Part shown: positions 1-4,077 of the stretch, piece after piece
Numbering within the stretch: position 1 is the stretch's first letter
Layout of the letters: each line of letters starts with the position of its first letter
Made by a program: the position numbers and the translations under genes
Source of the DNA: Phaeacidiphilus oryzae TH49
GTDB taxonomy: Bacteria > Actinomycetota > Actinomycetes > Streptomycetales > Streptomycetaceae
Direction of reading: 5' to 3'
Assembly (NCBI RefSeq): GCF_000744815.1
Contig: NZ_JQMQ01000005.1
Span: forward strand, 6,033,801 to 6,097,800
DNA: 64,000 nucleotides
Notes under the pieces: model-generated
Seen by the model: only the letters and a program-made list of their open reading frames with translations
What the model was told of the DNA's origin: nothing
Database searches by the model: none

Positions 1-446
1 GCCAGCAGCAGCGGGTGTCGGACCGTCAGGCCGAAGGCGAGAACGCCGCACCCCACGATCAGCAGCTGCTGCGCCAGCAGCGCGGCGAAGACCGGCACCG
101 CCTTCCCGACCAGCAGCTCGGCCGCCCGCAGCGGCGCCGCCCGCAACCGGTCCCAGGTGCCGGCCAGCCGCTCGGTGAGGATCGCGCTCCCGGAGATGCT
201 GAGCGCCAGCAGCGAGAAGGTGACCAGCGTCCCGGCGACCGCCTGCTCGGTGCCGGCGCCGGGGCCCTGGGCGGCCAGGTAGAGCGGCCGGAGCAGGGTC
301 AGGAAGACCAGCGGGAGGACCATCCGGCTGAGCACCGGGCCGGGTTCGCGGACCATCAGCAGCAGGTTGTGCCGGATCAGCACCCCGGTCCGCAAGACCG
401 ACTCGAGGACCGGCTCGAGGACCGACTCAGGCAGCGGCGCCATCAT
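1..446 (-). CDS. ABC-2 type exporter permease, partial
   Basis: Membrane subunit of an ABC-2 (DrrB-like) exporter, reading out of the window. Only the first 148 or so residues are present. They show a short polar N-terminus followed by hydrophobic stretches and the sequence ILTERLAGTWDRLRAAPL, which matches the conserved cytoplasmic loop of ABC-2 permeases (E-R-x-x-G-T-x-x-x-L-R-x-x-P). Two adjacent ATG codons (at 446 and 443) are possible starts. Both overlap the end of the upstream ATPase gene, so the pair is translationally coupled. With its ATPase it probably exports a hydrophobic compound; the substrate is unknown. Confidence 0.8.
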   Translation of the reverse strand, partial: MMAPLPESVLEPVLESVLRTGVLIRHNLLLMVREPGPVLSRMVLPLVFLTLLRPLYLAAQGPGAGTEQAVAGTLVTFSLLALSISGSAILTERLAGTWDRLRAAPLRAAELLVGKAVPVFAALLAQQLLIVGCGVLAFGLTVRHPLLL

Positions 447-1366: not shown

Positions 1367-1396
1367 GTATACGCTGTATACGTCTACACTGTATAC
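1367..1396. promoter_or_regulatory. Operator candidate: three GTATAC repeats
   Basis: The self-complementary hexamer GTATAC occurs at 1367-1372, 1376-1381 and 1391-1396, ending 2 bp before the TetR start codon. Such A/T-containing palindromes stand out in this GC-rich DNA. Their place between divergent ABC-exporter and TetR genes fits a TetR-family operator that controls both directions. That function is inferred. Confidence 0.65.
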
Positions 1397-2899: not shown

Positions 2900-2938
2900 A
2901 GGCCCTCTCCCCGGCTCAGCCGGCCGGGGAGAGGGCCT
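2900..2938. terminator. Bidirectional intrinsic hairpin
   Basis: A perfect 16-bp inverted repeat (2900-2915 with 2923-2938) with a 7-base loop lies between the converging nitrilase and glutaredoxin genes. It overlaps the last codons and stop of the minus-strand gene. No T-tract is present, as is usual for actinomycete terminators. Confidence 0.8.
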
Positions 2939-3188
2939 CCGGGGCGAACTCCCGGACGGTCTCCAGGAGGAGGCGCTTGCTCGGGTTGACGAGTGGCACC
3001 CCCGCCACGGTCACCGTGGGCACCGTCTCGTTCCCGTCGGCGACCGTGCGGACGAAGGCCGCCGCGTCCGGGTTCCTGCGGATGTCCACCTTGGTGTAGC
3101 GCAGCCGGGTGAACTTCAGGCGCAGCAGGAGGTCCAGGCAGAACACGCAGTCCGGCCTCCAGTAGATGACGACGCCGTCCTGTCCCAT
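2916..3188 (-). CDS. Mycoredoxin/glutaredoxin-like protein
   Basis: A 90-residue thioredoxin-fold protein with redox motif CVFC in YWRPDCVFCLDLL near the N-terminus and the conserved cis-Pro motif TVPTV near residue 60. Mycoredoxins reduce mycothiol mixed disulfides in actinobacteria; the W-R-P-x-C-x-x-C context is typical of that group. The ATG at 3188 is preferred over a longer frame from 3254 because GGGGGAGAACG stands just before it. The upstream region contains two copies of a palindrome shared with the divergent Clp-N/HTH regulator, suggesting joint control, perhaps a stress response. Confidence 0.82.
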   Translation of the reverse strand: MGQDGVVIYWRPDCVFCLDLLLRLKFTRLRYTKVDIRRNPDAAAFVRTVADGNETVPTVTVAGVPLVNPSKRLLLETVREFAPEALSPAG

Positions 3189-3249
3189 CGTTCTCCCCCT
3201 CGTGGCGGTGGCCGGTCGCTCGATCATAGGCGCGGGGAGGGAGACAGTC

Positions 3250-3295
3250 GTCAACCGGCGGTTGACGGACCCGGCATCGTCAACCTAAGGTTGAC
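3250..3295. promoter_or_regulatory. Paired operator GTCAACC-N3-GGTTGAC
   Basis: Two copies of the same 17-bp inverted repeat, at 3250-3266 (spacer GGC) and 3279-3295 (spacer TAA), are 29 bp apart. The second ends 2 bp before the ATG of the Clp-N/HTH gene. Conservation of both 7-bp arms with different spacers strongly suggests a protein-binding site; the adjacent regulator is the obvious candidate. Spacing near three helical turns would place both sites on one DNA face. Confidence 0.78.
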
Positions 3296-3297
3296 GC

Positions 3298-4077
3298 ATG
3301 GATCAGTTCCCGGTTTCTCTCGACAACCTCATCGCCTTCGTGCGCGCGATCCACCCGGAGGGCGACCCGCTCGCCCACCTCGGGGACGCGATGCGCGTCT
3401 CCAGCCGCCTCGAGGACCAGGGCGACGCCCTGATCGGCCACTTCGTCGACCAGGCCCGGCGCTCGGGCGCCTCCTGGACCCAGATCGGCGAGAGGATGGG
3501 GGTCTCCAAGCAGGCCGCCCAGAAGCGCTTCGTGGCACGCGCCGACGAGCTCGTCCCCGGGGGTGCGGGGAAGATGTTCGGCCGGTTCGCCCCGCGGGCC
3601 CGCAACGCTCTGGTCGCCGCCCGCCGGATCGCTGCCGGCGACGGCCCGGACTCGCCGGTGCAGCCCCGGCACGTGGTCGCCGGGCTGCTGACCGAGCCCG
3701 AGGGGATCGCCGCCCGTGCGGTCCACCAACTCGGCGTCTCGGAAGGGCAGTTGCTCGACGCCCTGGGCCTCCCGGCGGACGCCGTGACCCGGGGGGCCGA
3801 CACCGCCACGCCGGTGGACATCAGCTCCGCCGCCGTCCACTTCGACACCGAGTCCAAGCAGACCCTCAGCCGGACCCTCAATGTGGCACTGCACTTCGGC
3901 CACAACTACATCGGCACCGAGCATCTGCTCCTCGCGCTGGCCGCCGAGGGATCGGCCAGTGGGCCGCTGCACTCCCTCGGCCTCGACGTCGACCGGCTCC
4001 GCCCGTGGATCACCGCCGAGGTGGAGCGGATCGCCGAGGCGAGGAAGGGGGAGCAGCGCCCGCCGGCCCAGGCCTGA
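3298..4077 (+). CDS. HTH regulator with Clp N-terminal repeat domain
   Basis: A 259-residue protein that joins a DNA-binding helix-turn-helix (about 59-82: SWTQIGERMGVSKQAAQKRF) to two Clp-N repeats (about 96-160 and 184-250, each with the R-H-x-x-x-G-L-L or T-E-H-L-L-L-A-L signature). Clp-N repeats are the substrate/adaptor-binding lobes of ClpA/ClpC ATPases, but no ATPase domain is present. The protein could therefore sense or recruit the Clp machinery, or unfolded proteins, while bound to DNA. A paired palindrome abuts its start codon, implying autoregulation, and is shared with the mycoredoxin-like gene. The exact function of this family is unknown to me. Confidence 0.85.
   Translation: MDQFPVSLDNLIAFVRAIHPEGDPLAHLGDAMRVSSRLEDQGDALIGHFVDQARRSGASWTQIGERMGVSKQAAQKRFVARADELVPGGAGKMFGRFAPRARNALVAARRIAAGDGPDSPVQPRHVVAGLLTEPEGIAARAVHQLGVSEGQLLDALGLPADAVTRGADTATPVDISSAAVHFDTESKQTLSRTLNVALHFGHNYIGTEHLLLALAAEGSASGPLHSLGLDVDRLRPWITAEVERIAEARKGEQRPPAQA

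What the first reader, a model, noticed from the sequence alone, without database searches (positions are those of the whole stretch)
3188..3298. Clp-N/HTH regulator and mycoredoxin share a paired palindrome
Two identical-arm palindromes (GTCAACC-N3-GGTTGAC, 29 bp apart) sit between a mycoredoxin-like gene and a regulator that joins a helix-turn-helix to two Clp-N repeats without any ATPase. The protein may couple proteolysis or protein damage sensing to redox gene control. I know of no described system of this kind.
Basis: partly seen in the sequence, partly recalled or inferred. Interest (0 to 1): 0.72.

Follow-up and report, generated by a model that had tools for sequence, protein, structure and literature searches.

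The report
ClpC2 self-repressor and its paired operator
The gene looks like a known kind of bacterial self-repressor (ClpC2) that can sense toxins aimed at the cell's main protein-shredding machine; following its DNA tag led to an apparently undescribed two-gene version in the same genome and in related bacteria.

Summary
In detail: two perfect 19-bp palindromes (CGTCAAC-N5-GTTGACG, 29 bp apart) lie directly before a gene with an HTH and two Clp_N repeats. The claim "no described system" is wrong. The protein is an orthologue of mycobacterial ClpC2. The palindromes are the published ClpC2 operator, placed as published over a leaderless promoter. The paired site is present at 58 of 58 clpC2 loci selected by protein score; a mycoredoxin neighbour is at none of them, so the redox link is unsupported.

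Two points go beyond what my paper searches found. (1) This orthologue lacks both C-terminal arginines proposed as DNA contacts, yet keeps perfect operators and the HTH. The solved N-terminal fragment stops just before the recognition helix. (2) The same genome has a split version: an 80-aa HTH protein, then a separate Clp_N protein, behind paired GTCAAC-N4-GTTGAC sites. All 30 split loci examined fit N4 and all 58 fused loci N5. The exact paired N4 site is in 36 of 258 genomes sampled from the class. Together these point to the HTH, not the Clp_N domain, as operator reader. Nothing was tested at the bench.

The parts
2916..3188 (-). mycoredoxin/glutaredoxin-like gene (90 aa, CVFC), divergent neighbour; beside clpC2 only in this genome among the loci examined
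   Evidence: TIGR02200 E=7e-18, below its cut-off; mycoredoxin relative near clpC2 at 0 of 58 unique protein-selected loci
3249..3267 (.). distal ClpC2 operator CGTCAACCGGCGGTTGACG; its right arm supplies the putative -35 of clpC2
   Evidence: exact match; published operator form
3262..3267 (+). putative -35 (TTGACG) of clpC2, inside the distal operator
   Evidence: read from sequence; not called by the strict promoter scan
3278..3296 (.). proximal ClpC2 operator CGTCAACCTAAGGTTGACG, 1 nt before the ATG
   Evidence: exact match; TAnnnT in the proximal spacer at 56 of 58 relatives against 3 of 58 in the distal one
3286..3291 (+). putative -10 (TAAGGT, TAnnnT type), 18 nt after the -35; predicts a leaderless transcript starting at or next to the ATG
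   Evidence: read from sequence; TAnnnT conserved in relatives; not called by the strict scan
3298..4077 (+). clpC2 orthologue (259 aa)
   Evidence: PDB sequence hits: ClpC2 C-terminal domain 8ad9 (2.4e-20), 9p2p (2.3e-22), 8b9o (9.3e-26); Rv2667 N-terminal domain 8ada (4.1e-14); top Foldseek hits 8b9o and 8ad9, ClpC2 C-terminal domains
3475..3531 (+). helix-turn-helix, residues 60-78; recognition helix 71-78 (KQAAQKRF)
   Evidence: AlphaFold2 model, mean pLDDT 96 (61-70) and 87 (71-80); block 43-79 almost invariant in 39 sequences
3574..4011 (+). two Clp_N repeats (residues 93-238), the toxin/substrate-sensing domain by analogy; N195/H199 replace the two arginines proposed as DNA contacts
   Evidence: Pfam, structure search, residue mapping

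Best explanation
The locus is a clpC2 autorepressor unit. ClpC2 dimerises through its N-terminal helices and its HTH reads the two CGTCAAC-N5-GTTGACG palindromes, which cover the -35 and -10 of its own leaderless promoter and keep it off. When the Clp_N domain binds a ClpC1-directed peptide such as cyclomarin, or perhaps unfolded protein, repression is lifted and ClpC2 accumulates as a decoy that spares ClpC1. Shown in mycobacteria by others: autorepression, the operator form, lifting by cyclomarin, sponge effect. Shown here by computation: orthology, the exact operator, its conservation, its overlap with promoter-like elements. The mycoredoxin gene is most likely a chance neighbour in this genome.
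For: Both domains match solved ClpC2 structures by sequence and the C-terminal domain by fold. Published operator: CGTCAAC-n5-GTTGACG, one to two nt upstream of the ORF, often repeated further upstream, overlapping -35 and -10, leaderless (PMC10030653); the window has this form. Paired site at 58 of 58 unique protein-selected loci, each site with at most 2 of 12 arm mismatches, spacing 28 (33), 29 (23) or 23 (2). 28 of 30 loci fetched by the exact motif, one per genome, are clpC2 promoters. Only two exact N5 sites in this genome, so no sign of a wider regulon, though 41 two-mismatch sites were not examined. HTH as reader: block 43-79 almost invariant; both published C-terminal contact residues are absent here (N195, H199; the only one of 84 scored loci that lacks both) while the operators are perfect; an HTH-only paralogue without any Clp_N part stands behind the same half-sites; spacer length follows HTH type, N5 at 58 of 58 fused and N4 at 30 of 30 split loci.
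Against: No binding or expression data for this protein. The published R185A/R189A double mutant bound DNA less efficiently, and the authors place DNA contact in the C-terminal domain. The missing arginines could instead mean that this orthologue binds more weakly. Of the residues near cyclomarin named in print, F96 and F172 are kept (F94, F182) but E181 is S191, so ligand specificity may differ. The strict promoter scan calls no promoter here, and TAnnnT in the proximal spacer reads equally on both strands (56 of 58 each).
Confidence: 0.9

Rival explanations
1. One reading: the regulator couples protein damage sensing to redox control by jointly regulating itself and the divergent mycoredoxin gene through the shared palindromes.
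For: The genes are divergent. A TATGAT -10-like element of the mycoredoxin gene (3228-3223, - strand) has a TTGACG 20 nt upstream that is the left arm of the distal operator (read), so bound ClpC2 might block it.
Against: No mycoredoxin relative near clpC2 at 58 of 58 unique protein-selected loci nor at 28 motif-selected clpC2 loci, some of them the same. 9 of 9 mycoredoxin orthologues elsewhere lack the N5 palindrome. A 20-nt spacer is long for a promoter. A mirror-image promoter inside the operator would need TAnnnT in the distal spacer, found at 3 of 58 loci and not in the window.
Confidence: 0.07
2. Published structural model: the C-terminal Clp_N domain, through the helix with R185 and R189, is the specific DNA reader, and the N-terminal domain only dimerises.
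For: The R185A/R189A protein binds DNA less efficiently, the corresponding M. smegmatis double mutant is 2.0-fold derepressed, and cyclomarin bound nearby hinders DNA binding (PMC10030653). The first arginine is R in 82 of 84 scored fused loci, and in 28 of 30 split Clp_N partners.
Against: R57A (dimerisation) derepressed more, 4.6-fold. ClpC1, with a similar charge pattern, binds with little specificity. The window orthologue lacks both arginines with perfect operators. HTH-only proteins sit behind the same half-sites. Operator spacer follows HTH type. The first arginine is also kept in ClpC1, so its conservation need not mean operator reading. The crystallised N-terminal fragment (4-72) maps to window residues 3-69 and lacks the recognition helix 71-78.
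Confidence: 0.12
3. The palindromes belong to another factor (for example a ClgR- or HspR-type stress regulator) that controls clpC2 from outside.
For: clpC2 is also induced, more mildly, by heat shock (PMC10030653); other regulators of clp genes exist (recalled).
Against: The exact N5 site is limited to clpC2 in this genome; direct binding of ClpC2 to this form is published; the half-sites travel with the HTH gene in split operons.
Confidence: 0.03

Closest known systems
ClpC2 of Mycobacterium (Rv2667 and the M. smegmatis orthologue), PMC10030653
   Same: Domain order (N-terminal helical domain + Clp_N double repeat), no ATPase, operator sequence, doubled operator, 1 nt before the ORF, promoter overlap of leaderless type
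   Different: Both proposed C-terminal DNA-contact arginines are N195/H199 here; E181 near cyclomarin is S191; a longer loop between the repeats; a mycoredoxin gene diverges from it
RelI antitoxin of the RelS-RelI toxin-antitoxin pair (PMC13284704, passages only)
   Same: HTH region related to that of ClpC2 (published HHpred probability 99%); the split HTH profile matches the RelI chain 9sdc at E=7e-9
   Different: RelI pairs with a toxin; no dedicated search for a RelS relative was made here, and the neighbours run against Pfam are of other kinds. Its authors found no evidence of DNA binding and no likely regulatory elements upstream
ClpC1 N-terminal domain
   Same: Clp_N double repeat that binds cyclomarin, rufomycin, ecumicin, lassomycin (PDB titles)
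   Different: ClpC1 is a full AAA+ unfoldase; the window protein has no ATPase modules
ClpC3 (Hoi 2023, not held; known to me only from the review PMC10864484, passages)
   Same: Described there as a small Clp protein that, like ClpC2, shares the ligand site of ClpC1
   Different: Whether ClpC3 corresponds to the split Clp_N partner could not be checked; its sequence and neighbourhood were not seen

Membership tests
ClpC2 | N-terminal domain homologous to Rv2667 residues 4-72 | tested here: met
   phmmer to 8ada, E=4.1e-14, query 3-69
ClpC2 | C-terminal Clp_N double repeat closest to ClpC2, no ATPase | tested here: met
   8b9o, 9p2p and 8ad9 rank above all ClpC1 chains; Foldseek ranks 1-3 are ClpC2 C-terminal domains
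ClpC2 | Operator CGTCAAC-N5-GTTGACG 1-2 nt before the ORF, often doubled | tested here: met
   exact, 1 nt before ATG, doubled; form from PMC10030653
ClpC2 | Conserved C-terminal arginines R185 and R189 (proposed DNA contacts) | tested here: not met
   N195 and H199. A feature proposed for mechanism, not one that defines the family; membership rests on the other rows
ClpC2 | Cyclomarin-contact phenylalanines F96 and F172 | tested here: met
   F94 and F182
ClpC2 | Binds its own promoter; repression lifted by cyclomarin | not testable with these tools
   needs EMSA or reporter assay
ClgR/HspR-type regulon | Regulon of several protease or chaperone genes with the same site | tested here: inconclusive
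   exact N5 sites only at clpC2 in this genome; the 41 two-mismatch sites were not examined
Mycoredoxin regulatory unit | Conserved clpC2-mycoredoxin divergent pair | tested here: not met
   0 of 58 unique protein-selected loci
RelS-RelI toxin-antitoxin | Adjacent RelS-like toxin gene | not tested
   no dedicated search for a RelS homologue; the flanking genes run against Pfam are a carbon-nitrogen hydrolase, a GNAT acetyltransferase, an HTH_31-type protein and a peptidase M24

The most novel reading that the evidence does not exclude
In the split form an HTH protein of roughly 65-90 aa reads paired GTCAAC-N4-GTTGAC sites over a leaderless promoter, and a separate Clp_N double-repeat protein encoded directly downstream is the sensor or decoy for ClpC1-directed toxins. 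The two forms share half-sites but differ by one base in spacer, which would insulate them where both occur, as in this genome. In a minority of loci the same reader stands before other genes (serine hydrolase-like, ABC transporter). It follows that in ClpC2 too the N-terminal HTH, not the Clp_N domain, is the operator reader.
Probability: 0.72. Interest if true: 0.62.

Novelty: new member of a known kind. Interest (0 to 1): 0.42.

Why it matters
For the window locus itself: it removes a false 'new system' and an unsupported redox link, and extends the published ClpC2 operator to this family with base-level conservation (the species named in the published figure legend do not include a Streptomyces or close kin). 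Beyond it: ClpC1 is an anti-tuberculosis drug target and ClpC2 blunts cyclomarin, so knowing which ClpC2 domain reads DNA bears on how that response works. The split operons separate reader and sensor by nature, which makes the question directly testable in harmless laboratory bacteria. Cyclomarin is made by a Streptomyces, and Streptomyces plasmid records carry fused relatives (3 records), so producers and their kin may use such proteins against these peptides (inference).

Tried and rejected
Chance palindromes: rejected. Redox regulon: rejected as a conserved feature (mycoredoxin relatives at E<=1e-12 are in 110 of 297 family genomes). Wider N5 regulon: of 30 loci fetched by the exact motif, one per genome, 28 are clpC2; the other two lie in an ABC-permease-like reading frame (L054) and upstream of an allantoinase-like gene (L073). 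One search lists further orphan sites; three were fetched (L114-L116), none is beside clpC2, and L115, the only one read, lies inside dnaX (gene names are my reading of the translations). Four HTH-side matches in the same genome were fetched (L125-L128): only L125 has the paired sites; L126 has none, L127 gave no meaningful match, L128 no match. Single N4 sites occur in 196 of 297 family genomes, but that short pattern's control also hits at least 30 genomes by my reading of the table, so it is not used as evidence. Genus-level search held only the window's own genome. The scan of named genomes found one relative, Gordonia amarae. Plasmid searches: 7 records for the fused protein, 1 weak partial hit for the split partner. 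Fold search of the split HTH model: no hit below E=0.001; many of the top ones are HTH DNA-binding proteins, so homology rests on profile comparison. The mycoredoxin reference window:2916-3189 was out of frame by one base and gave no family; corrected. Self-resistance in cyclomarin-type clusters: one paper names a ClpX-like ATPase, not ClpC2 (PMC8068612, passages).

Counting limits: family counts (297) include the window's own genome. The 84 loci were found by a pattern that presupposes the HTH form and contain repeats of some loci; 6 of 90 were not scored, two of them without clpC2. The 58 loci are the best-scoring 29 family and 29 class matches other than the window's own, not a random draw; six of the class set belong to the same family. 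One search examined 30 loci (own genome among them) of 67 genomes with a match; one search examined 30 loci (own genome among them) of 36 genomes with a match, and those have the N4 pair by construction. The mycoredoxin test reaches about 1.5 kb to each side. The exact 19-bp motif is in 93 of 297 family genomes; its reversed control hits 13 by my count of the table.

Full report
OBSERVATION. The window holds two exact palindromes at 3250-3266 and 3279-3295. In the 19-bp form CGTCAAC-N5-GTTGACG they are the only two copies in the 7.8-Mb genome, with none in the reversed-pattern control. With up to 2 mismatches in the 14 arm bases there are 41 further sites against 11 in the control; these were not examined. 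Sixty bases separate the distal site from the start of a divergent mycoredoxin-like gene; the proximal one ends 1 nt before the ATG of a 259-aa gene. That gene encodes two Clp_N stretches and an HTH that Pfam sees only weakly but AlphaFold2 shows clearly (helices 60-67 and 71-78; mean pLDDT of the model 90.1).

WHAT IT IS. By sequence the protein matches the solved N-terminal domain of Rv2667 (8ada, query 3-69, E=4e-14) and the solved C-terminal domains of ClpC2 (8b9o, 9p2p, 8ad9) better than any ClpC1 (alignments of the five best). By fold the first three hits are ClpC2 C-terminal domains. It is therefore a ClpC2 orthologue. ClpC2 was described in 2023 (PMC10030653; outline with abstract, sections 7 and 11 in full, other passages). 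It represses its own gene at 'CGTCAAC-n5-GTTGACG' one to two nt upstream of the ORF, often repeated upstream, over the -35 and -10 of a leaderless promoter. Cyclomarin binding lifts repression and ClpC2 then acts as a sponge that protects ClpC1. A 2026 paper (PMC12913811, passages) reports induction by desoxycyclomarin but not by an ecumicin analogue or ilamycin E2.

CONSERVATION. A ClpC2 relative (E<=1e-30) is in 233 of 297 genomes of the family, own genome included, and one at E<=1e-20 in 74 of 246 genomes of the class. The exact 19-bp motif is in 93 of 297 family genomes; at protein-selected loci others have slightly different arms, such as TGTCAAC...GTTGACA. At 58 unique loci chosen by protein score, 58 have the paired site with at most 2 of 12 arm mismatches per site. 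Spacing is 28 bp (33 loci), 29 (23) or 23 (2). TAnnnT lies in the proximal spacer at 56 of 58 and in the distal one at 3 of 58; the counts on the reverse strand are the same, so the direction of the promoter rests on the distal arm's TTGAC upstream of it, not on TAnnnT alone. An ATG follows the proximal arm within 2-3 nt at 56 of 58. In the window this gives TTGACG (3262-3267), 18 nt, TAAGGT (3286-3291) and a start at or beside the ATG. The strict sigma-70 scan does not call it.

THE MYCOREDOXIN NEIGHBOUR. None of the 58 loci has a mycoredoxin relative (tblastn E<=1e-3) within about 1.5 kb. Relatives of this gene (E<=1e-12) exist in 110 of 297 family genomes. Nine of the closest, at 69-74% identity, carry no N5 palindrome with up to 2 mismatches in about 3 kb. 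A -10-like TATGAT for the mycoredoxin gene lies 20 nt from the left arm of the distal operator, so incidental repression in this genome is possible, but no conservation was found.

WHICH DOMAIN READS DNA. The 2023 paper puts DNA contact in the C-terminal domain (R185, R189), with the N-terminal domain as dimeriser. Four observations point to the HTH. First, the crystallised N-terminal fragment (residues 4-72) corresponds to window 3-69 and stops before the recognition helix 71-78. Second, residues 43-79 are almost invariant in 39 sequences. Third, the window protein has N195 and H199 in place of the two arginines, alone among 84 scored loci in lacking both (R/R 73, R/H 7, R/K 2, S/R 1, N/H 1), while its operators are perfect (the scoring pattern presupposes the HTH form and some loci repeat). 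Fourth, the split system below. In print, a 2026 paper noted an HTH region shared by ClpC2 and RelI (PMC13284704, passages); in the passages I saw there is no statement that this HTH reads the clpC2 operator. Against this reading: the R185A/R189A protein did bind DNA less efficiently, and the first arginine is kept in 82 of 84 fused loci and 28 of 30 split partners, although also in ClpC1.

THE SPLIT SYSTEM. Four weak HTH-side matches in the same genome were fetched; one, G000:C5:6292500-6295000 (L125), has the paired sites and three do not. In L125 an 80-aa HTH protein (Pfam HTH_23 above its cut-off) is followed 11 nt later by a separate 193-aa protein with two Clp_N stretches. In front lie GTCAAC-CGGG-GTTGAC and GTCAAC-CTAT-GTTGAC, the same half-sites with a 4-base spacer, ending 3 nt before the ATG. 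Relatives of the Clp_N partner at E<=1e-20 are in 67 of 297 family genomes. Of 30 loci examined (own genome among them), 30 have the HTH gene directly upstream on the same strand (gap 1-11 nt in 29, 68 nt in one) and 30 have two N4 sites with at most one mismatch each. Scored for spacers 3 to 7, fused loci fit N5 best at 58 of 58 and split loci N4 best at 30 of 30. The exact paired N4 pattern is in 36 of 258 class genomes, 23 of 98 genera, own genome included, with no control hit in the table. Of 30 such loci (again with the own genome), 30 have an HTH match starting within 250 nt downstream on the same strand, 29 of them with an ATG 2-5 nt after the site (not L172), and 24 have a Clp_N gene next. 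The rest are followed by serine hydrolase-like genes (L178-L180), an ABC transporter (L172), another gene (L188) and a diverged Clp_N-like ORF (L190) (names other than Clp_N are my reading of the translations). The profile of ClpC2 and that of the small HTH proteins align with 97.5% probability, E=8e-12, over the HTH. The small HTH profile also finds RelI (7e-9), a 'CAP repeat' chain (2e-5), the truncated Rv2667 domain (7e-4) and a phage immunity repressor (1e-3) in the PDB. Its own AlphaFold2 model has helices 51-58 and 62-70; Foldseek with it gives no hit below 0.001. Among 30 split partners, the two cyclomarin phenylalanine positions are F in 26 and in 27. In this genome the exact GTCAAC-N3..6-GTTGAC sites are two N5 at clpC2, two N4 at the split operon, and one lone N4 site before a FAD monooxygenase-like gene, with 2 in the control.

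MECHANISM. Most likely: the HTH dimer holds the promoter shut; ligand bound to the Clp_N part (same chain in ClpC2, partner protein in the split form) opens it; the product soaks up the ligand. For the fused form this is published in mycobacteria except for the reader domain. For the split form it is inference from anatomy, and contact between the two proteins is not shown.

NOVELTY. The window locus is a new member of a known kind. The split operon would be a new variant of that kind. Paper searches that returned no description of it, judged from listings and abstract starts: (open-licence PMC only; Hoi 2023 on ClpC2 and ClpC3 is not held, and could bear on it).

Noticed in passing
L125:1077-1958 (G000:C5:6292500-6295000, same genome, outside the window): Split ClpC2: 80-aa HTH gene and separate Clp_N gene behind paired GTCAAC-N4-GTTGAC sites
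   Followed up: yes
L178, L179, L180, L172, L188: The same kind of HTH gene with paired N4 sites is followed by serine hydrolase-like genes, an ABC transporter or another gene instead of Clp_N, so the reader module seems to be reused
   Followed up: partly
L159 near 1501 (G000:C5:6102666): A lone exact GTCAAC-N4-GTTGAC site before a FAD monooxygenase-like gene, about 5 kb beyond the window end; may be a site of another regulator or chance
   Followed up: no
L119, L120, L121 and L118, L123: Diverged fused paralogues (about 32-35% identity) in other genomes: L119-L121 have paired N5-type sites before the ATG, some arms degenerate; L118 has only loosely similar repeats and L123 a single degenerate site
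   Followed up: partly
G000, 41 places listed: Two-mismatch versions of the palindrome are more frequent (41) than the reversed control (11); composition or real weak sites, not examined
   Followed up: no
window 1367-1396: Three GTATAC repeats between an ABC transporter gene and a divergent TetR-like regulator gene; looks like an ordinary operator
   Followed up: no
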